Of a DNA stretch of 64,000 bases, positions 4,401 to 57,158 are shown piece after piece. The DNA lies in NCBI GenBank assembly GCA_029204225.1, contig MU831891.1:1-64000 (forward strand). Reading direction: 5' to 3'. A model generated the notes under the pieces. It was not told the origin of the DNA. It ran no database searches and saw only the letters and a program-made list of their open reading frames with translations. Made by a program: the position numbers and the translations under genes. Position 1 is the stretch's first letter. Each line of letters starts with the position of its first letter. The DNA comes from Diphasiastrum complanatum. Its lineage: Eukaryota > Streptophyta > Lycopodiopsida > Lycopodiales > Lycopodiaceae.

Positions 4401-5344
4401 TTTCTTTTGTTCAAAGTAAATATGATCCTACTCTTTACATTAAGTTTGATGATGTTGGTATTGTACTTTTACTCATTTATGTAGATGACATCATCATTAG
4501 TGGAAATAGTGTTGATGGTATTGAAAAAATCAAGATAGATCTATCCTTAGAGTTCAAGATGGTAGATCTAGGGTGTCTTCACTTCATCTTAGGCATAGAA
4601 GTACTTAGAGGGTCTGATTTTATCTTTATAAGTCAAGTAAACTATGCTCAAAGTCATTTGAAGAAGTTTAAGATGGAAGTATGCAAAAGTGTTGACACAC
4701 CAATGGAGCAAGATGTAAAAGTGCCAAATGAAGATGATGAAAGATCCTTCATGGACATCACTTTGTTTAGGCAACTTATAGGTTCCTTAATGTGGATCAC
4801 TATAACTAGACCAGATCTTAGCTTTAGTGTATGTACGTTGAGCCAATCCATGCAAAAGCCATTGAATATCCATTGGAAAAAGGCTAAGAGGATTCTAAGA
4901 TACATCTCGGGTACATTGGATTTTGGGATTCTATATAGAGGAGATGTGATTAACCTTCATGCATTTAGTGATTCAGATTTTGCAGGGGACAAGAGGGATA
5001 GGAAATCAACAAGTGCCTATTCAACTTTCATAGGAGAAGGTGTGGTTTCATGGCTTTCAAAAAAGCAAGAAACTATATCTCTATCTTCAACCGAGGCCGA
5101 GTACAAAGCTTTGACAACCACTACAAAGGAGGTACTTTGGATCAAGAGATTATTGGTGGAGCTAAAGATCATGGATTCAGATGAGGCACCAATCATCTAC
5201 AATGACAATATATCAGCCCAACACCTTGCATCTAACCCAATCTTCCATGCAAGATCTAAGAACATTGAGATATGCCATCACTTTGAGAAATGGTGCAAGC
5301 CAAGGAGATTGCTTTGGAGCATGTTCCAAGCAATGAATGTGTAG
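1472..5344 (+). CDS. E1 copia Gag-Pol polyprotein (1290 aa, frameshifted at the extreme C-terminus)
   Basis: A single long frame carries the copia domain order. Gag has a UBN2-type N-terminal region and a CCHC zinc knuckle at about residues 256-269 (CYYCSKMGHYASEC). Protease has DSGAS at 315-319. The pre-integrase zinc motif is H448, H453, C482, C485. The integrase triad is D512, D574, E610. Reverse transcriptase has YVDD at 1003-1006, and RNase H has its DSDFAG and STEAEY motifs near 1165 and 1215. The order protease-integrase-RT-RNase H defines Ty1/copia. The final ~20 residues do not resemble the family; the expected RNase H tail continues in another frame from about 5290, which a 4-base deletion near 5283 would explain. 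All other catalytic motifs look intact. ATG at 1472 follows an 800-base leader. Confidence 0.93.
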   Translation: MASINAYLLDTNERLNKTNYSIWKVRMESIMIMQYLMKIVNGKEGEPIHPQEKAKYIKKCNVALHCIKMNVANELLREVGDCTSAQDAWETLQKVYESKNQTRMLALKNQIYRSYQKKGESAHNFVLRVKELNKELAFIGDPIKDEELVQLILNGLSFEFDNLVQGYAIMGKLPILEELQGTLMVEESRRSQMQERMDRLSIQGGDDQALFTKGKGKSKGKVSTFKKSTKLEDQEGPSKASPSTTKVKKDKSKVKCYYCSKMGHYASECFKRKQDQGQANMSKEEEEEESSHEDSLMMSIFSSTSFKGEDPWWIDSGASSHMTSKREFFSSLLSYDGPIKSIYTANDEACKIEGVGRIPLCLGSSKKINIEGVLYIPTITKNLLSVGQMVDNGFNVDFASNECFIKNKGKIVAKGTRLGKLYKLDAFVDTNVVMLAEKSKISTFTLWHKRLGHVNSGSMEAMIKEEYALGLPRSIGKEDKVCEACALSKAHKKVFPNSITNSSHPLELIHSDVHIASTKSNGGSSMFLTFIDDYSRYCWVFLLSFKSQVFDTFIKFKLFVEKHHNHSIKILRSDNGGEFISNEFKAFCEEEGIKKETSCPYTPQQNGVAERRNRTLCECFKALRLNSCLPKSFWGESLVCANYLMNRVSCKAIEGKTPYEMLYGKKPNLNHLKVFGCICYVHVPLETRTKEDPSSTRGIMLGYASSSKGYKVYLPSLNKFVVSRDVIFDEHHMHMLEEGSSAPTIKKKMAEEQDRGFEEELMEEQAPNPPITPRRSSRAKVEPSRLTYQGKEQQVEGISSTSYALSSFEEPSNVEDALNSKEWYKAMLDEYDALIENETWLLVERPQRNVIGCKWVFKLKFNANGSVNKHKARLVAKGYAQERGIDYEKTFAPVAKMVTIRLIIALASHFGWILCQMDVSNAFLNGFLEEDIYMEQPQGFIKHGMENKVCHLQRSIYGLKQASRSWNSRLHCYLISLSFVQSKYDPTLYIKFDDVGIVLLLIYVDDIIISGNSVDGIEKIKIDLSLEFKMVDLGCLHFILGIEVLRGSDFIFISQVNYAQSHLKKFKMEVCKSVDTPMEQDVKVPNEDDERSFMDITLFRQLIGSLMWITITRPDLSFSVCTLSQSMQKPLNIHWKKAKRILRYISGTLDFGILYRGDVINLHAFSDSDFAGDKRDRKSTSAYSTFIGEGVVSWLSKKQETISLSSTEAEYKALTTTTKEVLWIKRLLVELKIMDSDEAPIIYNDNISAQHLASNPIFHARSKNIEICHHFEKWCKPRRLLWSMFQAMNV

Positions 5345-5444
5345 CTGATCTACTTACTAAACCACTTCAAAAGACACCTTTTATGAAGTTCAGATCATCA
5401 CTTGGAGTGATTAGTAAAGCAATGATTGAACCAAGCTAGATAGT

Positions 5445-5453
5445 GAGGAGGAA
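5445..5453 (+). other. E1 polypurine tract
   Basis: GAGGAGGAA sits directly before the TGTTAAAA start of the 3' LTR. This is the expected plus-strand priming site. Confidence 0.85.
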
Positions 5454-6132
5454 TGTTAAAAATTCACAATTCTAGCTTGACTAGTTTTGGTCATATGACT
5501 TGTAAATAGTTAGATGGTCATGATGTGGCTTGTCACACGTGCCAAATAGCATAGGATTCCATTCATAAGGATGTTCTCAAGTAGACCTAAGTGTTAGAAC
5601 CTTTGGAATGAGTCCAAATTATGCTTAGATACAAGGGAGAAAAAATAGGAGCTATTTTTGGTAATTTTTGCATTGTTGAGGGATCTCCAAGATTCCAACC
5701 CTAACTTGGTAGGGATGAAAGATCCACCAAAATTAGCATTAGGGATAGGTTTAGGGCTACTCATACCTGCCCAAAACCGTGATGGATCATGTATATATAG
5801 GTGATGATATCTCACCAAAATCAATCAAGCAATTTCATGTTTTTTCTCTCATAATGGTGCAATTGCTCTCTATGTTCATAATTGTTTGAGTACTTGTGAT
5901 TACTAATGATTATAGGATTGAATGTAGGTCTGGTGTACACTCAGACTGTGGGAGGCCGTACTTTCACACGTGTGAAGCCTTCTTCAAGGATTTGGGCCAT
6001 TTAGTGAGGTTCAAGCATAGATTTTTGATGGATTTTGATGGTTCAACTTGTGCTAATCTTATGAAATCATAATCTATTGTTTTCCTCATCATTTCAAGTG
6101 TTTTAGGATCCTTATTTACTGTAATTTTTACA
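5454..6132 (+). repeat. E1 3' LTR
   Basis: It begins TGTTAAAA after the polypurine tract and ends TTTTTACA where E2 coding sequence resumes. It is 679 bp and a near-exact copy of the 5' LTR. Confidence 0.95.
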
Positions 6133-7060
6133 TTGGCCGAGTGAGTTAACTGCAAAAGCGATGTCAGGTCTTGTGCAGACCATTGCATACATGAGAGAGA
6201 TCCAAGTATCGATCGATAAGGATACTCTCTCATCTGCTCCTCTTCCTGCTTGGTCTGAGGACATTGGTCCTTCGACAATCGCAGGCCTGGATCCATCGGT
6301 GAGTGAGCTAACTTGCACATAATCAGATTGTATCTTATGAGGACATTGTGAAGATACATTTGTTGAGTAATAAATATCAGTCGTCTCACTTTGTCTCCGT
6401 GGATTTGAATGCCCAGACAGAAGTGAGCGTCACCTAGATCAGTCATGTCGAACTCATAAGACAACATCTGCTTAGCATCCTTCACCAGATTGGTTCAATT
6501 GCTGAAAAGCAATGTATTATCTACATACAAGGTGATAATTATAAAGGATTGATGCACTGACTTGAAGTAGACGTTGTTGTCGGCCCTGCTTGGTTTAAAG
6601 CCTTGTCGGATGAGGAATGTGTTGATCCTCTAGAACCATGCTCTAGCTGATTGTTTCAAGCCATAAAGTGTCGTGTGGAGTTTGTAGACATGATGCTTCA
6701 TACCTTTATGGATGTATCCTTCAGATTGTAGCATGTAGATGTCCTCTTCAATGACTCCATTCAGATAAGTTGTCTATACATCGAGCTAATGTACTTCCAG
6801 GTCGGCTGCTACAACATACGACAGGAGGGCTCAGATTGATGACTGTTTGACTATTGGACTGAAGGTCTCATTGTAGTCAATGTTAGGGATTTGAGCAAAT
6901 CCTCGTGCTACTAGTCTTGCCTTCCTTCAATCAATTGCTCCATTGGCATTGTATTTGATTTTAAAGACCCATTTGCAATCGATGAGATTGCAGCCAGCAG
7001 GAGCTTCGACTAGTGACCATATCTGGTTCTTGATCAGAGAGAAATACTCTCTGTCCATTG
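6133..7060 (-). pseudogene. E2 reverse transcriptase / RNase H, broken
   Basis: Minus-strand translation gives copia RT blocks: a CKWVFKIKYNANG-like start near 6970, an NGVIEEDIYM-like block near 6750, an LYGLKQSARAW-like block near 6650, the active-site box at 6516-6527 and the DLGDAHFCLGI block near 6420. The active site reads YVDN instead of YVDD, and stops fall between the blocks. Near 6133 the sequence reads as the start of RNase H and is cut by the E1 LTR. Two catalytic defects (D to N plus stops) make it non-functional. Confidence 0.85.
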
Positions 7061-7067
7061 CTTCTCT

Positions 7068-8324
7068 TCAGAGATCAAAGTCTAATTGACTAAGTGCCTC
7101 ATCGACTGATGTCACTTCCTGCATTGAAAGACAGACAAACTCAGGAGTATACCTTGTGGGCTGTGTGCACACTCGACTTGATCTTCTTGGAGGAAGTATC
7201 GACTGATGATCCAATCGTCGAATTTTTTGTTGCTGAGTATCAATAGATTCTTCCTCTGACTCGCTGTTGGGTAGTTGGTCGATTATCTGCACGCTTGAGC
7301 CAGAAGCTCGAATTGTCGTGTCAGAGGCAGGTATTGAAAGTTCAATAGGAACTTTGTCCTTGCCTTTGAGGTCGACAAACTGATCCTCGATAAAGACTGT
7401 ATCCCTGCTGAACAAAGTCTGCTGGATATCAGGGTCATACAACTTATAGGTGTCATCATATGAAGTATATCCGATAAATATTGTCTTGAGACCTTGGAAG
7501 TCAAATTTATTCCTTGTCTCTTTCAGGATCTGTGCGAAGGCGATGCATCCGAATACTTGTAGGTTCTTCAATGAAGACTTTGAGTCTGTCCACACCTTGT
7601 GGGGTGTTTAGTCTGAGAGGGCCTTGGTTGAACATCTATTCTGGATGTAAGTTGCAGTGGAGACAGCTTCAGCCCAAAAGCTCTTCGATAAAGATGAGTG
7701 TGCCAGCATACATTTAGCTGACTCGACCAAGGTACGATTCTTCCTCTCGGCTAAGCCATTTGAATGAGGTGAGTAAGGAGTGATAAACTACTATTAAATG
7801 TCTTGGCTCTAGCAGTACTCTTTGAATTCAGTAGAGATGTACTCTCCACCATTATCGAACCTCAGGGCCTAATTCATTTTATCAGTCTCTTTCTCTGCAC
7901 GCTCTTTGAAGATTCTGAAGCAATTGAAAGCTTCAGATTTCTTCTTCATAAAATAAACCATAGTCCTTATGAAAAATTCATCAATAAAAGTTATAAAATA
8001 CTTTGCATCCTGTCGTGAAGGATTTTGCATTGGGCCACAAATATCTGTATGTACAACATCTAGCAATCCTCTAGTAGTATGTTGGTGGCTTGATCTAAAT
8101 GGTTTCCTTGTCTGCCTACCAACTAAACAGTCTTGACAGATAGGTAACTCGACTTTCTTATCAGGATAGTCGAGATCAAGAACAATGAATTGCTTAGACA
8201 TTTGATGTACAGAAGCATAATTCAAATGACCAAGTCTGTAATGCCAAAGTAAACCTTTATTTATCTGAACAGAAGTACTAAGTGCCTGACTAGAGACAGA
8301 AAAACAATGACTTAATCTGTACAA
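7068..8324 (-). pseudogene. E2 integrase and post-integrase linker, broken
   Basis: On the minus strand 8324-7869 gives the pre-integrase zinc motif (WHYRLGH and CQDC) and the first integrase catalytic Asp in the HTDICGPM block. 7595-7068 gives the C-terminal VFGCIAFAQI block, an FIGYTSYDDTYKLYD block and an acidic linker ending PPRRSSR, typical of copia between integrase and RT. The middle of the integrase core (7600-7870) lies in other frames. Confidence 0.8.
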
Positions 8325-32961: not shown

Positions 32962-33038
<77 letters not shown>

Positions 33039-33049
33039 AAGAAAGAAAG
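32962..33049. repeat. Compound microsatellite (TG)n-(GA)n-(GAAA)n
   Basis: A TG/GT run to about 32991 passes into GA repeats to about 33033 and ends with GAAA repeats. Confidence 0.95.
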
Positions 33050-33231
33050 TAATGTCTTTTCCATGCCAAAAGGCATATAAGACTGGAGAGGTAGTACAAC
33101 AGAGTAAATGGAACTCGGACGGAGCAGTGCCGTCAACAGAAAACTAGACTAAAACTAAAACGTAAATCGCTATGTAAAAGCTCATCTCTCACGCAGGAGA
33201 GGAAATAAATGGCCGTAGCTCAAAACATCTC

Positions 33232-34132
<901 letters not shown>

Positions 34133-34864
34133 TATGTGACTTTAATGCTTTGGATCCTTCATTGCCTCTTGACATCTCAGCAGCTGTCCATGCCATTATT
34201 GAATCACTTTAGTTTTGTTTGCTTGTTTGTCGGTAATAGGAGTTGCTTGCATTATTGGGCACCTTGAGTTCCGAGGATTGAATAAGCTTCAACTTTACCC
34301 TCTCACAGGTTGCCTTCCAAGATCAATTTCGTAAAGGTCAACTTAAATAAAAGCCATCATCCTGTCAGGGCATGTTCTGCTTCTGCTGCTTCTTAGTCAA
34401 AATCCTCTGCTGCCGTCTTTGACCTCCCTGAGAATATTTTTTTGCATGTTTTCCTTGTATTGAGCACCAAGAATGCTTGTTGCTTTTATTGTTTCTATCA
34501 ATATTTCTAGTTTCTTCATTATTCCTTGCACCCTATGAGCAGTGTTGGTACATGCAACTTAGTTGTGGGCATTGTACCAGCAAGAAATGTTGATAGGCGA
34601 TTTTTTTCTTATTGGGTATGTTTACATGTCCTAAGTACTTTCAGGAACTCATGAAGAGAAAATCAAATGCAAAGATTTGGGAGGAATTATTCAAATAATA
34701 GAGTAATCATGATACAAGATTTGTAAAAACTCTCATAAATATCAATATATTTCTCATTTTTTGAGAATGTACATGTGCGTCCTGTATTTTACAATGGATG
34801 CTTTTGCCCATAATTATTCCCAGGGCATTACATCAAAAATGTATATCTCTATTTAATCTATTAT
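34133..34864. other. No gene recognised
   Basis: AT-rich, no coding signal. It may include the left end of the transposon that carries the Ulp1 gene, but no terminal repeat was identified. Confidence 0.35.
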
Positions 34865-36052
34865 TTACAGCTCAAAGTAATATGGATTATCTCCAGCCTG
34901 CACTAGTGTCAGTTGTGGACTTGATTGCCCTCTCGTTTCCGCAGCTGGACTGGGTCTTCCATGAGATAATAAGTTCACCAACATTTCTTGACGAAACTCA
35001 TATATCTCATTCATTGTAAATGCTCGACATTTATACTGCAAATCCAAAATAGTCGAGTCAATCGACTTATCAGAAATGAAATCCAAAATAATCGAAAGTA
35101 ACTTAGTTAGGCCATTAACTAGTCTATTTACCTCTCGTATATCTGGAGCCTCGGATTGCATGATGTACCACTCTAAGAAGTTCTGTATATTGCAGATGGA
35201 GAACCATCCACAGCTGTGTCCATCATCTTGTTGAGCTGACTTCAATCACAAAAGGTATAATAGGTTAGTTGTGCACTCTGAAAAAAACAAATCAAATTAC
35301 TTATCAAATACTTGATGAGAAATACTTACTGTTGCATCAACAATCTCCAAGTGGCTATTTACAGTGGCCCCATCCAGCCTTGGCAAAAATTGCATAATTT
35401 TGTTGTACATGATGTCCATTTCGGCATGGGTGGAGCTCAAGGAATTAATCTTTAAACAGATGGGATTAATGATCCCATCTGAATCTTCCCTAAGGGAGAT
35501 TACATGCATACTCCAATGCTTACTACAAACAAGAGATAATTAGTTAGACTGAAGGAATTACAATACCTAAAACAAAATGTTACTTGAATATATTCTATGT
35601 AATCACTTACTTTTGGCAGTATGAAACATTGAAGACTTTGGTCTCCGAAGTTGTATGGACAAGATACTTCGTCGCCTGAGTTGGACTATGAAGGCTGTGT
35701 GCAAAATAGGACATCACAACCCCAATGTCTTTACTATTATCGCATTTACATCTATTTACAAAATACATCAAACCGGCCTCCACAACTGGATCTGATATAT
35801 CTGATGTCTTATCTTTCAGGGCATCACAAAATTCTTTATTTATGTGATTTACATAATTAATTGAACTTAGACAAAAAGAAAATTGACCTCCTAACTTATC
35901 TATTTCTTTGGCAACATACTCATCAAAAACTATATATCTCTCGGAATCCAAAAATGAATCTTTCGGATCAACATGAAATCTTACACAAAGAACTTTATAA
36001 AAATCACCTATTAAACTCTTATGTAGATCCGATATTATTTTACCTTACAATA
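34865..36052 (-). CDS. Ulp1-like (C48) cysteine protease domain, three exons
   Basis: Exon A (about 36052-35611) ends CAAAA before gtaagt; exon B (35522-35330) and exon C (35239-34865) follow with good acceptors (ttgtag, gattgaag), and both joins keep frame. Exon A gives FNVSYC, exon B opens with KHWSMHVISL (catalytic His-Trp) and later has KINSLSSTH, and exon C has QQDDGHSCGWF (oxyanion Gln and nucleophile Cys). His, Gln and Cys are all in place, but the Asp that normally precedes SL is Asn. The family removes SUMO/NEDD8-type modifiers; transposon-borne copies have no proven role. Exon A is upstream-joined to the H3-like region only through frame changes. The C-terminal ~80 residues show no motif I know. 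Confidence 0.8.
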
Positions 36053-36257
36053 GAGGTCATATCCTCATCATTGTGGGATGGAATGGAGGGAATGGAGGAG
36101 GAACTACTTGAATAGTCAGGGGTGGTGGGAGGAGAAGAACGCTGGGTAGACTGGAGTGATGGTCCAACCACAGGACGAGAGATAGGAGGGGGGGATGGTG
36201 ACTGAGTACTACCCTTTGTCTAGCAGGCCTGGTGGGCTTGGTTTGCTTTTTCCTTCT

Positions 36258-36699
36258 TCATTCAGGAACATGCCCTCTCTCTGTAGGTGGTGGCCTACAG
36301 GTGAAGCCACTCTTAAAAACCTGATCGTATGTACTCCTCAGCCTCATGACAAGATGCATGTCCTGAGGCATGAGCGTAACTCTCTTGGCATGCACAGTGC
36401 AAAGAATAGAGTTCTCATAGAATTTAACCTGAAAGTCCTCATAGGCAGTATGGAGGGCTTCCAAGGCTGTTATGTTCCAGTGAACATCATGTGAGAGTGA
36501 CCTTGTCACTAACCTCACAGACCTGTAGAAAGGAGCATGGAGAATCAGGAGATTCGTTGTCCTCTATAGTCTCCTGATATCCCTTAGCCATGGTCTTCTC
36601 GGACGACCTGCTCTCCTACCAGTGCCCACTGCCCTTCCTATAGGAGGACGAGGAGGCAGCGCAAAATAGTAAGACGGGTGTCTGCTTGGTACGAGCCAT
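36258..36699 (-). pseudogene. Histone H3-like protein, divergent, with in-frame stop and one frameshift
   Basis: ATG at 36699 encodes MARTKQT, identical to the canonical H3 N-terminus including Lys4. One base later the frame shifts and continues with a Pro/Arg-rich tail, LRDIRRL (canonical LREIRRY), a TAG at 36564-36566 where H3 has Gln, then the fold helices and LCTVHAKRVTLMPQDM followed by HLVMRLR. From LC to the final R, 14 of 23 positions equal canonical H3. Loop 1 is about four residues shorter and the tail about ten shorter. After the fold comes a Cys/Pro-rich segment, a TGA at 36258, and a basic RRKKQ stretch. It lies same-strand, about 200 bases ahead of the Ulp1 exon, so the two may once have been one protein. 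It could instead be a captured host H3 copy. Confidence 0.75.
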
Positions 36700-36959
36700 T
36701 TCAAGCTATGGTATCGCTATGACGCGCCCAACAGATAGAACAATGGGTATCGGTGACAGGAGGCGCGTGATGGCGATATAGGAGATGGTGTATCGCTACA
36801 ACGCGCGGAGAGAAAAGTGCTATGAGAATATGAGTGATTGGGCACATGGTAGCGATATGCGGATAGCGACAACAAAAACTAGGAGGAGAGGAGCGCTAGG
36901 GAACCAAGAAATCAGAAATTAAAAAATGAGTCAAAAACGTTCTTTTATACCTGTTGAAT

Positions 36960-37260
36960 GTCGTAATCATTGTCACACGTGTGATGCGACATGTACCTTT
37001 TACCGCACGTGTGGTGACACATGTCAACGTATGGATCACACACACGTCAGGGCATAACTGGTCCGTACAATCGTATGGCTAGCTTGCACGTGCGAGGATA
37101 TGTGTTATGATCTGGTCCACACACGTGTCATGGGATAACTAGTCCGTACAATCGTATGGTTGGCTTGCATGTGCAAGGAAACATGTCATGATCTAGTCCA
37201 TACACGTGTCATGTAATGATTTGGCCATCGTTTTCCACACGTGTGGCTATTTTGACCGCA
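36960..37260. promoter_or_regulatory. CACGTG-rich repeat region upstream of the H3-like gene
   Basis: At least six CACGTG cores, mostly as ACACGTGT-like palindromes, occur in 300 bases. Two copies of an 81-bp unit (GTCCGTACAATCGTATGG start points at 37061 and 37142) carry most of them. CACGTG is the G-box bound by bZIP and bHLH factors in plants. The region starts about 260 bases upstream of the H3-like ATG. It could equally be subterminal transposase-binding repeats. Confidence 0.5.
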
Positions 37261-38460
37261 CGCTTCCAAAACATGGGTACGGTTCAGATCCTCTGAAAGA
37301 AAAGAAAAATTTAAGGCATAGAGTGAATGAAATGAGCGGCAACTATGCCAATGTTGTACTTTCAGTTCTTCTCTAAGTTCTACTATGGCAGTCTCCCATC
37401 TAGTAAAAATACTAAAATCTAGCAAGATCAGACCAATTAGATGATTACAATTCTGTAAACTGGTTTGCATGTGTTAGAAAAAGAGTTGTATGTCATGAAT
37501 TTTCACTTTATTGTGATGAAAAAACTGGAAAATAGTCAAAAATCATCATTTTTGCTTGTTTTTTCATAAAGTTGGATAGTAGGTGGCTGTAAAACACCAT
37601 GTAGAGCTTGTAAAGAGGTGGATCAAAGTCTTTTGAATCTTTCCTTGAATTTAGAACCAAGAATTCCAGCAATTGAACTTGTAGGAAGTCAAAAAAGTTC
37701 AAAAAATGACTATTTTTGGTGATTTTTGGGGGATGGATCTCTCCAAATCCATAAGGAGATCATTCTGAAATTATTTACAACATGATTAGCATTTCTTTTT
37801 ACCTTTCTATCAAGCTATCAGACCTGTAAAATGATGGCCGCTGGCTTATGCATAATCTCCATCAAGTTTTAAGCTATTTTGACTTCTACAAATTAAAAAT
37901 CTTTGTTCTCAGCCTATACTGCATCTTAGGATCTACATGAATGCTTCATGGAAGTCTAATTGATTGTTTAAGACTGTTCGTAGCATCAATTTTGGGCTAG
38001 GATGGGTATTTGCACGTTTTTGCATGATTTTGTCTTGTGGAAATGCGCCCCTACTATAGATTTTATGACACTCTAATCTCGCACACGTGAAGCCTAGGTG
38101 GTAGGCTGATGTGACAAGCATCTTGTTCACCTAATCTTCCTCTGTACTGAGCTTTACAACACCCAATTTGGTGTCTTGTAGCCAAAGTTATGATCATCTG
38201 AAGTTTGGCAGTTTTAATTAGAATATATATAAGAATGTCGTTTTCCGAATTAAGTTTCGCATATCAAGTCTAGCAAACCGACCTGCTCCAAAATCAAAGC
38301 ACACTATATCACTACCACACGCCCAACAAACGTCTCTACAGTACCACTGCTCTCTTGGCACGTAATTTCGATATTCGAAATTCTGTAGCCTGTATATCAC
38401 CATTATGCTCCGTGGACTACATCCTTTAGTTCCCCTTGCTAATTGGCGCCTCATAATGAT
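37261..38460. other. No gene recognised
   Basis: Between the CACGTG repeats and the start of the plus-strand acidic-protein gene. No domain was recognised, and the sequence may serve as a divergent promoter or leader. Confidence 0.35.
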
Positions 38461-39984
38461 ATGGCTTCCTCGTCTACCAGTTCAATCTATGATAGAGCGT
38501 TTAGTTCTTTCCTTGTTGATGTTGGGGTCAGGCTCATTTTTTGTCCTATTTCGATTTTCAGTTTGACATAGAGAGATTTGTCATTGAGCACAGGGAAGTT
38601 TTTCCCAAACTGTAAAAGGATTTTTATGACTGCTTGCAACAGGGTACCCTTTTGATGGACGGCCTAAGATTTGTGCATTTCACAGATTTGAGTCATGCTC
38701 AGCCTAGTGCCAAGCAAAGGCATGATCGTAAGTTTACCAAACTTATCTATCTGTTTAAACGTGTCATACCCTGTGAGGGACACAATCGTGTATGTCGCTT
38801 CGTTCAGGAGGGTATGGCCTTTGTGTTTTTCATATCTGCTCTTATCCCTGACGAGGCAAAATCTTCTTAGTCATCCATGATTGGTTTGCCTACCCCTACC
38901 ACTCTTGTAGCTTCGGAGGTTTCTACTACTGATGAGGTTCTAGGAGATGTAGAGGAGGCCAGACAAGCACAACAATATGATCCTGCCAAGGCTCGTTCTT
39001 TTTCTATCTCTCCCTTATCTATCGTAAGTGAGATTGACTAGAGCAGAACTCTAATGGACATCCCTATGTACCATATGGACGATATTCCATTCTAATCCAT
39101 TAGCGATATCGGAGACGGAATGGATCTTAGAGAAGATGAGATATGATCTCTTATGTCAAGAATGATTTCTGAATTTAATGATTTTATTGACTTTGATGAT
39201 GACGACCTCATAGATGGCATCGACTATGAGGACCAAGAAGAATGGGCAAGTGGCACAGATGCCCTTCAAAGGATGCTATATGAGAGCAAGACATATGAGG
39301 CTAATATGTCGAGTGAGGAGGAGTTTTTGGCTTTTCAAAAAAAGTATCCGCCAGCTCACATATATACTATTCCAACTGACCAGCAATCGACCATTATTGT
39401 TGGTCACAATTTAGAAGCTGCTGGTGTGATCCAAGCTGACAAGGAGAATTTTGTAAGTACATTGTCTCACAAAAATCATTTACTATTTAATGTGTAACTG
39501 ATGATTGATCTGCTAGTTTGACTAACACTTGATTATGTGTTGTAGGAAATCGTTGAAGTTGATGCCTTTGCTAGCAAGCATGGAGGATTGAGAGAGAGAC
39601 AAGGCAGGAGACAGAAGGATGTCTCATTGGCTCATTACTTGAGATAGTTTGTAAATAATGAAATTTGTATTTTTCATGAAAGGTTTTTTGTGAATGCGGG
39701 AACCTTAATCATGGCCATTAAGGCCCTACCTTTTTTGCCCAGGGGCATAAATATCCAAAAAATACATATAAAATCATTTTTTTGTCAAAAGAGATGTTGC
39801 TCTTAAAGTGTTCAATTACGTGCCAGAAAATGTTCCTATGAGATCATATGCTCTGGCAACTCTATCAGGATATATAGATCTGAGAAAAAGGACATCCACT
39901 CGATTTTTAGATCCGTATGATAGGAAAAAGTTCCTTCATGACCACACAACAAAAATTGTCCTTAGAGACAATGCAAAAAAATGA
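38461..39984 (+). pseudogene. Unrecognised acidic transposon protein, degraded
   Basis: A start at 38461 (MASSSTSS) is followed, after one frame change near 38550, by a long readable frame. It includes GTLLMDGLRFVHFTDLSH, then an acidic stretch (FIDFDDDDLIDGIDYEDQEE) and GHNLEAAGVIQADKENF, which ends at a gtaagt donor (39454). After a tgttgtag acceptor (39545) come FASKHGGLRERQGRRQ and SLAHYLR. A TAG and one frame change separate this from FLDPYDRKKFLHDHTTKIV, which ends at TGA 39984. At least six stops occur, nearly all explicable as C-to-T changes of CAG, CAA or CGA. I recognise no family. Position opposite the transposase suggests it is the element's accessory protein. Confidence 0.5.
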
Positions 39985-40092
39985 TTGTACTCTTTTCCAT
40001 TTAATGTATGTTAAATTTGAGAATTTTTTATCACACGCGTTTGATCTTTATTGAATGCCATCAATCTAGTTTTGGCTTATAAATTTACATAC

Positions 40093-41490
40093 TTTTTTGA
40101 ATCTTTGATATTCAGTTGATCTTGTTGTGTATCGAACTTGAGTCTGTCTATAAAACCATTGGAATAGCTGAATGATGTAACTATTTTTTGAGGATGTTCC
40201 ACCATGTTGTGTATTTTGCTGAAATGCTGCTCTTGCCTGCCAATGTGATTTCTCCATTCTTTGTGAGGACCATATACTCAAACTGCCATACTTTTTTGCA
40301 AAAAATGATACATGATGCCTTAGTATGTGCTACAATATCAAAGATTTATGCATTGGTTAGAAACATATGCATTTAGAATCTATCAAGCAAGTTATACTAA
40401 AACTATAAAATTGTAAGACATTGTTCAAATGTATCCTACCATGTAGTGGGTGATGTGATCTGAGCCCCAAGCCACCTGAACTGCATCTACAAACTCTATT
40501 GTTGTTTTCTCCAGTAGGAGTGCATCTGAATATGAAATTGTGTCTTTTCTAAGCACTTCAACCATATTATCGAGCTTTTTCCAAACTTCAACCTTCTTTG
40601 CCCTTGTTGTTCCTTTATCTTCAAAGTCTTGTGTTGCAGAAATAACATCTTTCCAAACCGAGTCTTGGATCTTAGATGACTGTTTAGAATGATTTGATAA
40701 AAATCGACGAGCTTTGACTCCTCCTATGCTAGGTTTACTGGGTACATTTCCTGTTTTTTCCGAAAGATTTTCATCTTTTTGTATTTTAGCATGTCCTTTA
40801 TGAAGGCCCACTTTTGACAACACTTCCTCTAATCGAGCTATTGCTTGTTTTGATGCTAACTCTGGCTTAGTATTCCATGCAAACAACATATGAGAGTATA
40901 TTAATTTCTCTATGATCCTCACCTCTCCATGAAGTGTGCAAATATGAACATTCTGTAAAGGAATTGGTAATACTGGTTTCCAGTTGGGATCTTCAATATC
41001 TCTTGAAACTCTTGTGCTCCTTGAAATGTCACTTGATGATTTCATACAATATAGACATGGATGTTTCGAATTTGCTCCATGAGATACATTGAACAGACAT
41101 TTCAATGACTTCAAGTCTCCAACTAAATGCCATTCCACAAAAAATTCACCTCAGTCAGGAACATTAAGTACTTTGTCGTTCATATGATCCTTTATGGTAT
41201 CTGGATAACTTGTTCTGCTAAAAATCCAGGAAAGAACATCGTGATCCTCTTTGATAACCTGTCCAACATATGGAATCACAAGTTTTTATATATTCAAAAC
41301 ATTTACCAAAAGAAATTGCACATGAATAACACCATATGTTGTTTTCTGATTGCACACTGAAGTTGAGATCCCTTGAGTTTGTTGCATTGTTCAATGTTCC
41401 ATTCATGAGAGTAATACTTACTCTTTCCAACTTTTGTCCTTTTATAACTTTCGATTCATCTAGCTTGACCTCCAGAATAAGTTTGCTCAT
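40093..41490 (-). pseudogene. DDE-type transposase with C-x2-C insert, broken and 5'-truncated
   Basis: Exon 1 (41490-41307) has LERVSITLMNG. An intron (41306-41249) joins to exon 2 (41248-40440) with SWIFSRTSYPDTIKDHM, a TGA where Trp is likely, then EWHLVGDLKSLKCLF and HPCLYCMK, IPLQNVHICTLHGEVRII, and a GGVKARRFL block, ending ITHYM before gtagga. Exon 3 (40329-40093) continues HILRHH, then SQRMEKSHWQARAAF and ends before gtatgt. A conserved Asp in GDLK, a C-x2-C knuckle, and a late Glu followed by a helix with His fit an RNase H-fold transposase. I cannot name the superfamily with confidence. The N-terminus is missing at the junction with E5, and a further 3' exon was not found. Confidence 0.6.
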
Positions 41491-41552
41491 ACTAACACTT
41501 GTAATATTATAGAATTTTTAATTACATTAAAAGTAAAAAAATTGAACAAGGA

Positions 41553-44110
41553 AACCGTTAAGAATAGATATCCACTACAACAGATGGATGACCTAATAGA
41601 TTATCTTGGTGGTGCTGGGTACTTTACCAAGATAGATCTAAGGTCCGGATTAAACATGCATTAAGGCAGAAGATATATCAAAAATTGGGTTTTGAACTCA
41701 CTTTGGTCACTACGAATTTTTAGTGTTGCCTTTTGGTTTGACCAATGCACAGACAACTTTCCAATAGATGATGAACGATTTGTTCAGGCCATATTTGGTA
41801 AGATTCGTAGTGGTATTCTTAGATGATATCTTAGTGTTCAGTAAGACTTTGGCGGAACATAAATAGCATCTTAGGATTGTTTGGGACATCCTAAGAAGGG
41901 AAAAGCTCTAGGCCAAAGAGTCTATGTGTGACTTTTTTTGCAAAGGAATTGTCTTACTTGGGGCATAAGATTTCCAAACGAGGGGTGGAGATCGAGGCCG
42001 ATCGTATCCAGAGGGTTATTGAGTGGTCTATTCTCACCACAGTTCAGGAAATCAAGGCTTTCTTGGGGTTTGTAGGATTTTTCCATCGGCATATTTTCCA
42101 ATTTGCTCGATTGGCATTTTCCCTTACCCAGGCCTTGAAAGGCTATAAGAAGCTAAGCCGGATGGCTAAGAGTCCACTAGTGGTGTGGACGGAGGATATG
42201 AACAATTGTCTTGAGTTGCTTAAAAAAAGTGTCACTTCGGCACAAATAATAATCATTGGCGATTCTAATAAGGCTTTTGTGATTAGGACTGATGCCAGTG
42301 ATTATGCTATTGGAGCTATTTTGATGCATGATGGATATCCTATTGCTTTTGAAAGCAAGAAACTCAATCCTGCTCAGTCTAGGTATTGTACTTATGAGAA
42401 GGAACTGTTTGCAACTGTTAATTCCTTGAAAATTTGACGACATTATTTGTATGGAGCCAGATTTGAAATTTTGACAGATCATCAAACTCTTCGATATTTC
42501 TGTGATGCTACAGATCTAAAGGGGAGGCAAGCTAGATGGGTTGAGTTGATGCAAATCTTTGACTTTTCTATATGTTATAGTAAAGGAAGTCAAAATACTC
42601 TAGCGGATGCTTTGAGTAGGTTACCGGTTATTAATCAGTTGTGCTTTACTGTTATAGATCCGAGGTTGTTTCAATCTCTTCAAGGACTATATGAGTTCGA
42701 TCTTTTTTTTGGAAAGTATTGGCAACAAGTACTTTCGGGGGTCGATTCAGATTTTGCAAGATTTTTCAAATCGGGGGAAGACTGAAACGGATTTTCTTAT
42801 TCGAAACAGGATTTTGTTTCGGTGTGTCTACCAAAAAATGACACTATAAGTGGCCAAATCTTGCATGAGTGTCATGATAGTCCATGCGCATGACATCCGA
42901 GTATACAAAAACACCTGAATTAGTTCGAAGGCAATTTTGGTGGCCTAAGATGAAAAGTCAGGTAGAGGCCTATGTACTTAAATGTACTAAGTGCCAGATA
43001 AATAAAGCAGAGAGACTAAAAGCCAGTGGCCCATTACATCCTTAGATATTCCTACCAGAAAGTGGGAAAGTATATCTATGGATTTTGTGGTCAAGCTTCC
43101 ACGTACAGGGAAGGGCCACGATTCAGTTTGGGTCACTGTTGACAGCCTTACAAAGTTTGCTCAATTTATCCCAACAAAAACTACTGTTAAAGCTTCAGAA
43201 CTAGCTCAACTATTTTTTGAGAAGCTTTTTTGACTATACGAGCTACCTTGCAATATTGTCAATGACCGTGATCCAAAATTCACTGGGAATTTTTGGCAAG
43301 CAGTATTTGAAAAGCTGGAAACAACTTTAAGTATGGGTTCTACAGATCATCCAGAATCAGACGGTCAAACATAAAGGACCAATCAGACGATGGAGGATAT
43401 GCTTCGAGCATATGTAGGCCATCGACAGTCTGCTGATTGAAAACAATATCTTCCACTGGTCAAATTTGTATATAATAGTGCAAAACATTCAGCGACCGGA
43501 TTCAGTCCCTTCATGCTTATGCATGGTTTTCAACCTCGATCACCAATTAGTGTTGACATGAAAAACCTACGGGTGCAAGTCGCAGCTGATTTCCTTGCGG
43601 ATATGCAAAAAATGTTACAACTGGCTAAAGATAGCATAAGAAGTGCCCAGGATAGGGCAACGCACTATGCCGATCTATCTCGAAGGCACAAGGTATTCAT
43701 GGTCAACGACTGGGTATTTTTGCGAGTCCCTAGTCACTCTAGGGGCTTGAAAACTGGTAAGTGTGCAAAGTTGGTGCCTAGGTATTGCGGTCCTTTTAAG
43801 GTTATCCAAGTGATAAACAAGGTCGCATACAAACTAGACCTTCCAGCTAATGTTGGAATTCATCATGTTTTTCACGTTAGTAAGTTAAAACCCTCGTTAG
43901 GGGTTGGGGAGACCCTGCTCTATGTGGAAGATCTAGTGGAACTTCTTCATGATGAGTCTGCGAGTGGACCACCTGAACCTGAGACGATTGTTAATAGCCG
44001 GCCGACAGAGGACTCTACGGAGTAGAGTGCTTCAAGAATTTTAGGTAGGTGGAAGGGCAAATCAGAAGAGGAGGATACCTAAGAAAAGGAGGCTGATCTC
44101 CAGAAGAAAT
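41553..44110 (+). pseudogene. E5 RT, RNase H, integrase and chromodomain, broken
   Basis: RT starts at the family block for NRYPLP (about 41565). Readable parts are RT/RNase H (41928-42437; TDASDYAIGAIL), RNase H tail (42447-42785; ADALSRLP) and integrase zinc region and core in broken frames (42890-43480; FVVKLP near 43085). They end with the integrase C-terminus (43513-44025; [19 protein letters not shown]) and a degraded chromodomain to about 44110. Multiple stops are present, including a TGA at the RNase H Trp shared with E4. Confidence 0.85.
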
Positions 44111-44130
44111 TTAAGTTTAGGGAGAAGGAA

Positions 44131-45109
44131 TGTTACATACCTATGTAACTAGCAGTACTTCAGTGACCCCTATAAGTCCATTTAGTGTTGGGGGCTAAAT
44201 GGCAAGTTACCCTTACGATTAAGGGTATGTTCCCTTATTGGATAAGGGCAGGTAAGTGATTGTACCTTGGTCGGAGGTATGGAGTCAATGACCCATTGGA
44301 TAATGGGTACCCTTAGGATTAAGGGTAGGTACCTTAGATTAAGGTACTAGTGTCCTTGGATAAGGGCAGGTAGGTGTTTATGCCTTAGATGGAGGTATGG
44401 AACCTAGAGAGGTATTAGAAAGTCATTGGATGACTTTTTTTCTAAACCTTGGGCCTCAACCTTGAACCATATCACTTTATTGGTCTTGGACCAAAGTATA
44501 CTTGCACAACTTGGGCAATGGGTCCTATTAGGAGGGCACCCTCCTAAAGGGTCCATTGAGTTTCAAGTTTCACAAGAATAGCAATCAAAGAGTCATAAGT
44601 TATGGAAGATGTCTGATGACCTTCCATAAGCCTATGAAGACTCTTGAACTCCTCTAGGCCACTCTCTTTCTCATTGGATGTACATGGAACTCCATAGTGT
44701 ATTAGAGAGAACTAAATGCCATCTATATAAGAGGAGTAGGGCGCCCATTGGGAGGGAGAGAGATCTCTTTTGCTTGCTTCACTTATGCTCTAGTGTGGCT
44801 ACTAGTGTGTAGAGTAATTTCTTGTGTGTAGCATGCTGAGGGTTTGGATCTTACTTATGGTATGGGACATAAGTAGAGTTTGGATCTTGAGTATGCTATG
44901 GATTGTTGTGGTATGCTTGTGATTTGTTTATGGTTAGCAAGGGGGTGCTAGATAGGTCTTGCTTGGAGCTTGGATCTAGCTATGGTTGGGTGGTGAATAC
45001 TTGAGGCCAGCTTGTTATCTTCCTTTGTGTTTAAGAGTAGGGACACATGTGGAGGAGAGAGTGGAGGAGAGATCCTTGGAGGCTTGCAGATCCTTACTTG
45101 CAGGGTTCA
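44131..45109 (+). repeat. E5 3' LTR, 3'-truncated
   Basis: It begins TGTTACATACC directly after a purine tract (GGGAGAAGGAA) and follows the E4 LTR (in reverse) until TTACTTGCAG, where homology stops abruptly. Confidence 0.88.
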
Positions 45110-45899
45110 AAAGCATGAAAGAAAAAGCTTTTTGAAAATACAAGGGAAAATTAAGCTCCTCTCCTCAGGCAGAGAGAGAATAGAGCTAATTGAAACTCAT
45201 GTAGAGAGAGAAACTCAAACAAGCAAATCTCACCAACAATTTGACTCAAAATCTCAACTTTTTATAATGATCATATGGAGAAGTACACATAGAGTTTGTG
45301 AAGATCCCTCCTTGCATGCTATTGTACCCCTAATCATAGCCTCTTTGATTCTATTGGACCCATAATCATAGCCTCTTTAATCCTATTGGACCCCCTGACC
45401 AAGGCCGACTCTTTGACTTCATCACTCATCAAATTACATGATCACAAGTGTCAAAACCCTATTCATATGCCTATCTAGCTCGAGATTGCATCACTAATGG
45501 CTTTTGGCTCAATAGTGGCTTTACATGTGGATTTGACTATGATAAACTATTTTACACATGTGGGAACATGCTCCACACATGGGAAATGTTCACAAACATA
45601 AAAGACATGAAATTGCCAAGCTAGATTTTTGCCAATTTTTCACATACGGGAGTACACCCCTTGTCCAAACAACATGCAGGAAAGTGGGGGGGGGGGGAGG
45701 GGGGGGGGGGGGGGCGGCTGAGAGGGAAGCAGGGGGGATACAAGAGGAGGGGGGGAGATGTACCCCCATCTTCCCTCCTCCCAATTTTTTTTTTCAAAAT
45801 GGGGACCCAAAAAAAATATTGCACCCTCTTTTTTCTCATTCTAAGTTAATAAATAAATGATTTTTTAAGGCCTTGAAAAAAAAGCTATATTCTCATTTA
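45110..45899. other. No gene recognised; contains a poly-G tract
   Basis: Unassigned sequence with a G-run at 45686-45714 and short pyrimidine/purine tracts around it. No coding signal supported. Confidence 0.4.
45686..45714 (+). repeat. Poly-G tract with single A interruption
   Basis: 28 of 29 bases are G. The tract can form G-quadruplexes on the plus strand and is prone to length errors in sequencing. Confidence 0.9.
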
Positions 45900-47340
45900 A
45901 AAATCAAATTTGAAAATTGTAATATCATCATTGATATGGGTTGAGGAAGTAGAATTAGAGGAGGGTTAGTGGGTGGGTTAGAATTTGGAGACCTAAAATA
46001 CACCATTGGATGTGCCATGTCATATGGACCATTTCATCTTAATTATTACTCTCTCAATGGTACACATATCATCATTAACACTAATTATAATGTGGATTCC
46101 AAAAGCTTATTCACACTTGAATACAAAATTGAGAGAGTAGGATCAGTTTCTATGTGTCTTGGATCCACCAGGAAAGTCAAAGTTGAAGGCGTGTTGTATG
46201 TTCCTAACATTACAAAAAACTTTATAATGTTGGAAAACTTTTGAACAAAGACTTCTTTGTTAGACTTGATGCAAATGCTTGTTTTATTAAGCATAGTGAG
46301 AATGTTATAGCAAGAGGGACAATATTTAGGAGGTTTTCATGTTTTGATGCTTGTGTAAAAGCCAACCATTATGGATTGATTGATGAGGAAAAGACACCAC
46401 AAGTAAAGCCATGTCACAAGGGATTGGTTCACTCTAATTACAATTTCATGGAGTTTATGTGCAAGGAGGAGCTACTCTTGGGCTGGCTAGATCCTTTTCC
46501 AAGGGGTGGTAATGCACGGAAGCATGTGCTTTGGTTAAAGCAGCTAACTTTCATTTCTCAAGATTTATCACACAAAGACATAAAAGTCGCAATTTCTTCA
46601 CTCAAGACTGCACTTTTCAAGTGTGAGAAGCAATGGTGATTCTACTATCTTTGAATCTTTCATAGATGGTGTTAATAGACATGATGGGACTTATCTATAT
46701 CCTTTGTTGATAAAACAACTTCATGTGATAACTACGATGCTTAGATGGAGTACAAAACTTTGGTGTTTTGTGGTTTTCCATTGGATAGCATGTCATTAGT
46801 ATATAGTTCATCTACTTGCTCTTGGATTTTATGCAAGTAAGATCGATTACTTCATCCATGAGTTCGATGATTATGTTTTTCATGTTTTGAGGGATTTTGT
46901 AAACTTGTTATGAGAATAAGTAGATCATCCTCTAGGGACACTTATATCCATAATAAAGTGTTAAGCCTAATTGGATCCAAGATTTAGCATTGAATAGAAG
47001 ATTAGAGAAATGATGCAAAATATTTATAATTTTAGCATGCATAGTCTTGGAAATCTTGATATGCCTACTTGTGATCTTGATAGCATGATGAATCTTTGTG
47101 AGCCAAGAAGGCCTCGAGTTTTCTCAAACTATTTTCAAGGAGAAGGATCTTCTTCAAGCATGGAAAGAATCAATGGCAATGGTGCTAGGATGGTGGAATG
47201 CTCTTCATGGTGTTTGGGAATGGATTTCCATCATGGAGATCTTATCATAATTGTAGTGATCTTACATAAAGTTGAGGTTTATTGGCTAGTTTTCTCACTA
47301 AATTCATGCCAAAGGATCCATTTAAGAAGCTAAGACTAGC
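45900..47340 (+). pseudogene. Degraded copia fragment (protease to pre-integrase, with remnants of later regions)
   Basis: Plus-strand pieces read as copia: LGSTRKVKVEGVLYVPNITKN (46160-46220), then NKDFFVRLDANACFIK in a second frame (from 46241), and NYNFMEFMCKEELLLG at the pre-integrase position. Further on, 47040-47190 has a gag-pol-linker-like acidic and Pro-rich segment. No LTRs could be delimited. The fragment differs from E1 and E3, so it is a separate copia family. Confidence 0.65.
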
Positions 47341-54656: not shown

Positions 54657-57158
54657 TTAGCTCCATGTTGATCCACCGAGCAGAATAACGTCTTCAGTAC
54701 TTGTATCTTTGGTACGACTAGAATACCCCACTTCCTCAGCTTTTCCACTTGTGTCACCATACAAATCTCTTAGCTTCTTAAGATTGTTAATTGAAACATT
54801 ACTAGTGTCCCTTGATGGAGCTGGACTCACGGAGCGCCGCCCAGTACTTGGGCTTTGTTTTGAGGGGCTGTGACTATGGCTACGACTTCGGCTTCGGTGG
54901 TGACCATGATATCTACTCCTTTCAGAAGCTCGATCCTTCTCAAGACTTCGATCCCCGACTCTTTCACGCTCTCTTTCTCTGTCTCTGTATCTATCCCGTC
55001 CCCTTTCAGTTGCCTTATCGCTGTCCCTGTACCTATCATGAGCACTACCTCTACTACTTTCTCTCTCACGATCCCTACCTCTTTCTCTGCTGCCTTCACG
55101 GTGATGATCCCTTCCCTTACCTCTAAGCCTTTCCCTCTCTCGCTCCCTGTCCCTTTCATATTCTCGATCCCTTTCTCTTATTCTTTCTGAATCACGGGAT
55201 CGCTCCCTTTCCCTATCTCTTTCCTTGGCTCGGTCACGATCCTTCAACCTCTCCCTTTCGCGATCTCTATCTCTTTCTTCGATTCTGTCCCTCTCATCCC
55301 TATCACTAGCCTTCAATGGTCGCCGTTCATCAACCCCATTTCTCCGCATATCACTACCAGGAGGAATACTTCGTCTAACAGGTGAAGAGTCCCGAGTTGA
55401 TGCTCTATGGGGAGCACGCTGACCAAAAGATACTGAGAGAGAAGCTTTCACCGAGGGAGGTCGCCGAGCTGCATCATCTGATGCATGACGACCACCAGTT
55501 CCTGTGACTCCAGCTGGCTGAGTAGGAAGCTTCATCCTTTCTAAGTTTGCAGTTATTTGTCTTAACACTGGCACAGGAATCCTTGGAAACAATGTATCAA
55601 AATAGTACTGCATAAAGAGTCAGAAAGCAACAAACAAGAATCAGAATGCTTTACAAATCGTAAGTTTGATACTTACTAGAAATTCAGGAAGATATAGATA
55701 AATAAAAGGAGATGGAAGAGTTCAAGACATTGTAAGTTTGCTTTATAGCTTATCAAAGCAGGACGTTTCAATCATGAAGAGATATCTCATGAACTTTCTT
55801 GCAATTCTAGAAAATTCCTACAACATAAAGTGCCAAAAAGAGTAACTAGAGAACATTGTTCTGGTCTTGTGAAAATGAAAAAGCATTTACAAAGATTTCA
55901 GGTGATCCTCAAGCTATAAAATATGAGTTAGCTCTCTAAAACACAGACATTGGATAGAAAGGTAAAGCTTGACAATCATTTGTAATGCAAAGATTTCAAC
56001 AAAAGGTATCACTCTAAGCTCTTGTTGCAGACTGTTTGAAACTATCACTGTTTTAAGCATTCAATTGATGTCTTTCAACCTATCTGCAGAAAAATAAACT
56101 GCAGAAAGACGATCATATGTTTGCAAAAATCAGCACACTGTAACTGCACCATTATCAAAAGGTACCGAAACAACGTAGTACGCTAAAGGGATATAAATTT
56201 TGAAACAATGCAGCCCACCAGGATATGAATTTTGAAGCCTCCGTAGAAAAAGAACGAACTTGTTGGACATCTACTCGTGATCGAGCTCCAAAGAAACCGA
56301 CATCAGTGTATTCAGTAGTGAATGTCCATAAATGTACATGTGTTAGGTCAAAGTTGCAACCTAGACTTTGCAACCTAGTGAAAGGTTTCAGACATCATCA
56401 TGAAGCTGGAAGATTTTGAACGAATAACTAATTGTAATGTTGAAATCAGCAAATGATTAATCCCAATAATTCTTACTTTTAGGAGAGCCTCGGACCTCAA
56501 GGCTAGACCAGCCAAATAGGAGGACATGTCTCTAAAAGAAAAGCAGAAAGCGGATGCTGAAGCGTAGCATGATTATTGATGTGGCCACATACAAGTTTGC
56601 ATGCAGAGCAAAAAAGTTAGCCTTGCACCTTTGGGAAAATCATATACATCTTGCCATATCCTGAGATCAGCATGACATATTTCCCCAAAATTTAGAATGT
56701 TAAACAACTGCAGCATGAGACAAAATCTAAAGAAAAAGAGAACTGCCCAATACAAACACCAGTGTTGATCTCTTTGATGTCCAGATTAGTGCTATCAGCA
56801 TAAAAAACCAGCATCAAAGAGATTCCTAAGAATATTGACTCAAAACAAGAAGAGTACCACACAAAATCTAGGTGATCTACTTCAAACCTTTGAGAGAAAA
56901 TAGAATGATACTAAAACAACATTTGCCTGATTTGATCTTGGACTTACTAAAACTAAATCACAAAGCACTGAATTGTGCATTGGGTTTTGTTCTTGACCTA
57001 ATCAATGCACCAAGTACAGCAATACATCAATGCACAAACAGTTTGCTAGTATATTACAGAACATAATTAAGTCGGAAATAGCCCACCTGATGTAGGAGGA
57101 GGTCACGAACATATAGGCCCATTGTGGTAACTTTTCCATTTGAGCCTGGCGAAAATTC
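54657..57158 (-). CDS. SRL1: SRL1/PRP38B-like pre-mRNA splicing factor, last two exons
   Basis: Exon at 57158-57087 encodes EFSPGSNGKVTTMGLYVRD and ends CATCAG before gtgggc, 24 codons in phase 0. The final exon (55607-54657) opens YYFDTLFPRIPVPVLRQI after a tgcag acceptor. These are the C-terminal part of the PRP38 domain, which in yeast acts in spliceosome activation. The rest is a long R/D/E/S-rich region with a conserved ARRPPSVKASLSVSFGQRA segment, an RS-type tail, LKKLRDLYGD and a final GGSTW, as in plant SRL1. No disabling change is visible. Upstream exons (the N-terminal PRP38 domain) were not found before the window edge, so the gene extends beyond 64000. Confidence 0.93.

What the first reader, a model, noticed from the sequence alone, without database searches (positions are those of the whole stretch)
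34865..41545. A DNA transposon that appears to carry a histone H3-like gene alongside a Ulp1 protease and a transposase
Seen: an H3-like sequence, a well-formed three-exon Ulp1-type protease, an unknown acidic protein and an RNase H-fold transposase occupy 6.7 kb with no other recognised gene. Known: transposon-borne Ulp1 proteases occur in plant MULE and CACTA elements. I know of no plant DNA transposon described with an H3-type histone. Inference: the element may modify or mimic nucleosomes at its own DNA or at target sites, with the protease acting on SUMO-type marks.
Basis: partly seen in the sequence, partly recalled or inferred. Interest (0 to 1): 0.92.

Follow-up and report, generated by a model that had tools for sequence, protein, structure and literature searches.

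The report
Transposon encoding a histone–SUMO-protease fusion
A plant jumping gene, present in many copies across one large genome, carries its own histone H3 joined in one protein to a SUMO-type protease, which suggests that it tampers with the chromatin that would silence it.

Summary
Window 34650-41517 is a broken copy, cut at both ends, of a high-copy DNA transposon of the same 1.74-Gb genome. Full copies have imperfect terminal inverted repeats (CATTAGAGGAGTT / CATTACAGGAGTT). Six insertions compared with empty sites show no target site duplication (one differs by a single base). In 7 of 12 copies read, H3 and the first part of Ulp1 are one open exon of 362-365 codons. H3 lies inside the inverted repeats at fixed spacing from transposase and Ulp1, and is kept in lineages whose H3 folds share only 51-72% of residues. 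Its fold is the most constrained part (pN/pS 0.15-0.28; tail 1.03). K4 is kept and K9 lost in all 18 tails read. Best reading: a chromatin-tethered, de-SUMOylating anti-silencing factor. The anatomy is shown; the mechanism is inferred. Precedents are fungal transposons with TET/JBP or captured H3; I found no report of an H3-Ulp1 fusion, but half of my paper searches failed.

The parts
34650..41517 (.). decayed element copy; corresponds to bases 1487-7282 of the 9181-bp full-length copy on C2, so both ends are missing
   Evidence: blastn of full-length copies to the window; no terminal repeat in the window with up to 3 mismatches
36258..36699 (-). H3 domain of the fusion gene; N-terminus MARTKQTP at 36699, fold in frame 36563-36258, broken by a frameshift and a stop
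36046..36260 (-). Pro/Ser-rich linker between H3 and Ulp1, in another frame in this copy, in frame in relatives
35607..36044 (-). Ulp1 first part; same exon as H3 in relatives
35330..35523 (-). Ulp1 second exon: His (KHW, near 35518) and Asn in place of the catalytic Asp (KINSL, near 35446)
34865..35239 (-). Ulp1 third exon with Gln and Cys motif QQDDGHSCGW (Cys near 35212)
   Evidence: 150 genomic matches scored of 4768 candidates
38461..39647 (+). acidic protein gene (two exons, several stops), convergent to the transposase
   Evidence: matched beside the transposase in 9 of the 10 other copies (not in C6b), at 33% identity in C17
40069..41490 (-). transposase exons; putative catalytic Asp near 41460 and 41117, Glu near 40254; 5' exons lost
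   Evidence: the catalytic residues are assigned by inference from conservation
37290..38209 (.). insertion of about 920 bp relative to other copies, between H3-Ulp1 and the acidic gene
41536..45104 (+). Ty3/gypsy fragment next to the cut transposase side; not part of the element

Best explanation
This is a dead copy of an old, high-copy family of terminal-inverted-repeat DNA transposons in a large plant genome. The family encodes a transposase, an acidic protein and a fusion of histone H3 with a Ulp1-type protease (shown by sequence). Inferred mechanism: the H3 domain pairs with host H4 and is built into, or held at, chromatin, and so brings the protease to chromatin of the element or its target. 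There the protease strips SUMO (or a like mark) from silencing proteins. The H3 part keeps K4 but lacks K9, and in most copies has no other tail lysine, so nucleosomes that contain it could not take the usual silencing marks. The fusion would thus be an anti-silencing factor. Confidence: about 0.95 for element and fusion, about 0.8 that the fusion serves the element, about 0.4 for anti-silencing by chromatin-tethered de-SUMOylation.
For: Fusion: one open exon from MARTKQ/MAHTKQ through the H3 fold and linker to Ulp1 in 7 of 12 copies fetched for long frames (362-365 aa). Co-mobility. Element ends: 284 matches of the 5' and 223 of the 3' repeat with up to 2 mismatches, none in the reversed controls. 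Six empty sites without target duplication, of nine joined flanks tried. Selection: pooled pN/pS of the H3 fold 0.28 (9 copies chosen for open frames), 0.23 (14 copies), 0.15 (3 copies, chosen by transposase or the window itself); tail 1.03, linker 0.61, Ulp1 first part 0.45 and 0.43. One origin: three element lineages share 11 fold residues that differ from canonical H3, while 29 of 85 fold residues stay canonical in all three, among them E105, H113, D123, R129 and R131. Precedent for transposon-borne counter-silencing: TET/JBP carriers (PMC12730594, abstract and passages).
Against: No expression, protein or activity data. Asn stands for the catalytic Asp in 15 of 15 second exons printed, so protease activity is not assured, although papain uses Asn there (recalled). 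The tail as a whole shows no constraint among recent copies (pN/pS 1.03); exact ARTKQTAR is seen in 4 of 18 tails, and some tails have one or two further lysines, so the mark argument rests mainly on the shared loss of K9. Both structure models were too poor to use. The protein database gave no fusion relative. Copies for the largest pN/pS sets were partly chosen for open frames. One genome only.
Confidence: 0.5

Rival explanations
1. Structural rival: the H3 fold serves only as a dimerising DNA-binding module of the transposition complex, and Ulp1 matures or protects transposase or the acidic protein. No effect on host silencing.
For: The H3 fold is constrained while the tail is not; the tail is arginine-rich.
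Against: H113, D123 and other residues known from histone contacts are kept (roles recalled), more than a generic DNA binder would need; I saw no polyprotein that would need a maturation protease.
Confidence: 0.25
2. Hitchhiker: an H3 transcript was captured by chance and is merely amplified, as in the fungal hAT elements.
For: Such capture is described in fungi (PMC6710886, abstract and passages).
Against: Fusion with Ulp1, low pN/pS of the H3 fold, and retention in lineages whose H3 folds share 43-61 of 85 residues.
Confidence: 0.05
3. Targeting rival: the H3 domain steers integration to a class of chromatin (for example newly assembled or centromeric), and Ulp1 acts on the integration complex.
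For: An H3 that enters nucleosomes could mark target sites; inference only.
Against: The 150 H3 matches include every one of C1-C23, but clustering within chromosomes was not tested and no chromatin map is at hand.
Confidence: 0.15
4. Artefact: H3, Ulp1 and transposase lie side by side by chance in a repeat-rich stretch.
For: The window is full of nested repeats.
Against: Same order, strand and spacing in many copies, inside the repeats.
Confidence: 0.01

Closest known systems
Fungal hAT transposons with captured histone H3 (Pseudocercospora, Cercospora, Sphaerulina; PMC6710886)
   Same: A DNA transposon that carries H3-derived sequence in hundreds of copies
   Different: There: hAT transposase, 8-bp target duplications, copies mostly truncated and inactivated by RIP, Ulp1 not mentioned (0 occurrences); its abstract also tells of an H3 amplification in Pyrenophora with potentially active copies. 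Here: other transposase, no target duplication, divergent H3 fused to Ulp1 and under purifying selection
DNA transposons that carry TET/JBP dioxygenases in fungi (PMC12730594)
   Same: A captured chromatin gene kept by the element, thought to help escape from silencing
   Different: There an enzyme that acts on methylated DNA; here a histone fused to a SUMO-type protease
Plant MULE and CACTA elements with Ulp1-like proteases (recalled; my search for them failed)
   Same: Ulp1-type protease in a plant DNA transposon
   Different: No H3 domain known to me; other transposases and target duplications (recalled)
Plant VANDAL elements (named in the introduction of PMC12730594 as encoding a counter to silencing; details recalled)
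   Same: Element-encoded counter-silencing as the proposed role
   Different: VANDAL anti-silencing proteins are not histones or proteases (recalled)
CACTA/EnSpm and Plavaka (CMCT) and PHIS (Harbinger-ISL2EU-Spy) superfamilies
   Same: Ends CATTA..TAATG resemble CACTA (recalled) and PlavakaB CATCA..TGATG; 0-bp target duplications are known among Harbinger relatives (PMC12730594)
   Different: No family match of the transposase; the EnSpm and Plavaka cases in the passages read make 2-3 bp duplications

Membership tests
Core histone H3 | Histone fold by profile above the curated cut-off | tested here: met
   87.8 bits for L031 and 63.6 for the window part, cut-off 26.4
Core histone H3 | Closest to H3 rather than H2A, H2B, H4 | tested here: met
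   The 60 PDB sequences shown are H3 forms or H3/CENP-A chimeras (174 and 176 matched in all)
Core histone H3 | Canonical tail with K4, K9, K14, K27, K36 | tested here: not met
   K4 kept in 18 of 18, no lysine at 9 in 18 of 18, L031 tail has K4 only
Core histone H3 | Assembles with H4 into nucleosomes | not testable with these tools
   Contact residues such as H113 and D123 kept; no experiment
Ulp1 / peptidase C48 | Profile match above cut-off | tested here: met
   23.6 and 25.9 bits against 20.7, on hand-spliced exons
Ulp1 / peptidase C48 | Catalytic His, Asp, Cys and oxyanion Gln | tested here: not met
   Asn for Asp in 15 of 15 second exons printed; His seen in 12 of the 13 that reach it; Cys in 13 of 14 third exons found by pattern, all with at least one of the two Gln
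CACTA/EnSpm (CMCT) | 2-3 bp target site duplication | tested here: not met
   Six empty sites
CACTA/EnSpm (CMCT) | Transposase of that family | tested here: not met
   No Pfam transposase family; only sub-threshold DUF7619 and Birna_VP3. Distant kinship is not excluded
PHIS (Harbinger-ISL2EU-Spy) | DDE transposase of that family with 0-3 bp duplications | tested here: inconclusive
   0 bp fits; no Pfam match of the transposase
KDZ / Zisupton | 8-bp target site duplication (Zisupton) | tested here: not met
   8 bp from PMC12730594
Fungal hAT with captured H3 | hAT transposase and 8-bp duplication | tested here: not met
   features from PMC6710886

The most novel reading that the evidence does not exclude
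A mobile element has made its own nucleosome part: an H3 variant that can carry the active K4 mark but not the silencing marks on K9 or K27, and that carries a built-in SUMO protease. Copies that load it would write a silencing-proof, self-cleaning chromatin on the element. This would be a new class of transposon counter-defence, the histone-fused protease.
Probability: 0.3. Interest if true: 0.96.

Novelty: new variant of a known kind. Interest (0 to 1): 0.87.

Why it matters
Transposons are held down by chromatin marks, and few of their counter-weapons are known. A histone that belongs to a transposon, fused to a protease and kept by selection, would be a direct handle on the question of which chromatin steps (H3K9/K27 marks, SUMO) really silence transposons in plants. 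It is also a natural H3 variant with most tail lysines removed, which can be tested in nucleosomes.

Tried and rejected
Tried without result: PDB sequence search with the spliced Ulp1 part (three matches, none relevant); viral contigs with the transposase alignment (31 pattern stretches, none a relative); AlphaFold of a transposase relative and of the fusion exon (both too poor for a fold search, none was run); Rfam and tRNA scans of the window (none); inverted repeats of the window copy (no convincing ends, later explained by truncation); protein database with the fusion exon (one weak H3 match among 856 candidates, no fusion). A 2-bp target duplication that I first suspected for the C2 copy was rejected once its joined flanks were aligned to the window copia. 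Chance adjacency and passive capture were rejected (see rivals). I first took the extra H3-like rows of the canonical-H3 search for more subfamilies of this element; reading eight showed another family, without Ulp1 in the 2.1 kb read.

Limits: one genome. Genome counts are lower bounds: the best 150 candidates are scored and 100 repeat places listed of 284 and of 223. In the transposase co-location count I used 85 of the 150 listed transposase rows. The organism is named by no tool. Contigs seem numbered by size; of C1-C23 I saw 20 lengths, 42.5 to 83.9 Mb, then C24 10.9 Mb and C25 0.4 Mb. This suggests 23 chromosomes, which I recall for the clubmoss Diphasiastrum complanatum; passages of two papers (PMC10541799, PMC11276031) gave no number, so it stays unverified.

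Full report
What is in the window. On the minus strand, 36699-36258 encodes a histone H3-like domain (Pfam Histone, E 2.8e-17 for the in-frame part). It begins MARTKQTP and is broken by a frameshift and a stop. After a Pro/Ser-rich stretch follow three Ulp1-type exons, 36044-34868, with His, Gln and Cys of the active site and Asn for Asp. An acidic protein lies on the plus strand at 38461-39647 and transposase exons on the minus strand at 41490-40069. A gypsy fragment begins at 41536.

It is one element. In the window's own genome (1.74 Gb) the transposase exon, the H3 domain and the Ulp1 last exon each fill the 150 rows that the search scores (of 12213, 5980 and 4768 first-look candidates). 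Of the 150 H3 matches, 65 have a Ulp1 match downstream on the same strand within 10 kb, 57 of them at 1.2-1.5 kb; one pair is arranged otherwise. 33 lie within 15 kb of one of 85 transposase matches, 31 on the same strand and 20 at 3.55-3.72 kb; 0.2 are expected by chance. The other H3 matches have no partner in these capped lists; whether they have one at lower rank was not tested. Among 11 copies examined (10 fetched by transposase, plus the window), H3 matches are present in 8 (only 33-40 residues in 2 of these) and H3 or Ulp1 in 9; C7a and C9 have neither in the stretch read. C7a agrees with the window contig at 100% (rounded) over 8.6 kb, so it is probably the same locus or a recent duplicate.

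Ends and insertion. Two full-length copies are 8379 and 9181 bp long. They start CATTAGAGGAGTTACAAAC and end, read inwards, CATTACAGGAGTTCTCAAAC. The genome holds 284 matches of the first and 223 of the second 28-mer with up to 2 mismatches; reversed controls give none. H3 lies inside them: with 100 places of each listed, 45 of 150 H3 matches have a correctly oriented 3' repeat downstream and 1 has one otherwise placed; 22 have a 5' repeat upstream and 3 one otherwise placed; 8 have both ends. The C2 copy sits inside a copia gene; its joined flanks align without gap to the window copia at 4970-5175 and restore the frame. Of eight more joined flanks, five match an uninterrupted relative across the junction: C10, C5, C12b and C7d without a gap within ten bases of it, C12 with a one-base difference beside it; C3b, C3a and C7b found no such relative. 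None shows a duplication of two or more bases. Of 10 copies fetched for their ends, 4 gave no 3' end in the stretch.

H3 and Ulp1 are one protein. Of 12 copies fetched because of long open frames, 7 have an exon open from MARTKQ or MAHTKQ through the H3 fold, the linker and the first part of Ulp1, 362-365 residues; one of these (L030) lacks a few fold residues and one (L033) has a changed frame in the linker. L031 scores 87.8 bits to Pfam Histone, and its best PDB matches are H3.Y and H3.3. Two distant lineages, C6b and C17, one copy each, have the same H3-then-Ulp1 order; the H3 folds agree at 61 (L031-C6b), 47 (L031-C17) and 43 (C6b-C17) of 85 positions. They share 11 residues that differ from canonical H3, so one capture is likely.

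Selection. Pooled pN/pS within the family is 0.28 for the H3 fold in 9 copies chosen for open frames, 0.23 in 14 copies and 0.15 in three not chosen for open H3 frames (C2, C7b, window). It is 1.03 for the tail, 0.61 for the linker and 0.45 or 0.43 for the first part of Ulp1. The fold is thus the most constrained part of the exon, with the tail as an internal control. Towards C6b and C17 most synonymous estimates are saturated.

What the H3 can carry. K4 is present in all 18 tails read and lysine at position 9 in none; exact ARTKQTAR is seen in 4, and some tails hold one or two further lysines. Contact residues of the fold such as E105, H113, D123, R129 and R131 are kept in all three lineages (their roles are recalled).

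Mechanism. Shown: a mobile element whose third gene is an H3-Ulp1 fusion with a constrained H3 fold. Inferred: the H3 part brings the protease to chromatin, the protease removes SUMO or a like mark from silencing proteins, and the H3 part itself cannot be marked for silencing. Published relatives of the idea are the fungal TET/JBP transposons (PMC12730594: abstract and passages seen). The nearest case of a transposon with H3 is the fungal hAT (PMC6710886: abstract and passages seen), where the copies are broken; I saw no proposed role in the passages read. Searches for a published transposon H3-Ulp1 (in one search only 20 of 212 papers listed) gave none; six later paper searches failed, so absence from print is weakly tested.

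Against. No expression or biochemistry; Asn in place of Asp (15 of 15 second exons printed); no constraint on the tail as a whole; poor structure models; no fusion relative among the proteins searched; one genome.

Verdict. The finding is real, understated in one respect (fusion) and new as far as I could check. The element is a new variant of a known kind, transposons with captured chromatin genes; its transposase family is not placed.

Noticed in passing
L061-L068; most rows below the canonical H3 loci: A second high-copy H3-like family in the same genome: rows at 44-57% identity to canonical H3; eight read, all eight with a Pro-rich N-terminus or its trace and no Ulp1 in 2.1 kb. L061 matches Pfam Histone at 98.9 bits and plant H3.1 best in the PDB. 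That the unread rows belong to it is inferred from identity.
   Followed up: partly
G000 C11, C5, C23: Host canonical H3: 13 full-length loci at 97-99% identity, 9 of them on C11, clearly apart from the transposon H3.
   Followed up: no
window 38558-47150 versus G000:C7:32136982-32145552: The window contig and C7 agree at 100% (rounded) over 8.6 kb up to the start of the acidic gene and then part; the H3-Ulp1 half was not found in the 20 kb fetched there. Haplotype difference or recent duplication.
   Followed up: no
window 54657-55619, minus: Arg/Asp/Glu-rich protein with a weak PRP38-associated match, below the cut-off: perhaps a host splicing-factor exon.
   Followed up: no
window 1472-5344, plus: Open copia polyprotein of 1290 residues; flanking repeats at 1-661 and 5476-6133 are 98% identical, so a young insertion.
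   Followed up: no
window 33000-34090: Long GA repeats and an unknown ORF at 33349-33816 with no Pfam family.
   Followed up: no
window 37005-37213: Direct repeats of about 81 bp rich in ACACGTGT, some 300 bp upstream of the fusion gene, perhaps part of a two-way promoter.
   Followed up: no
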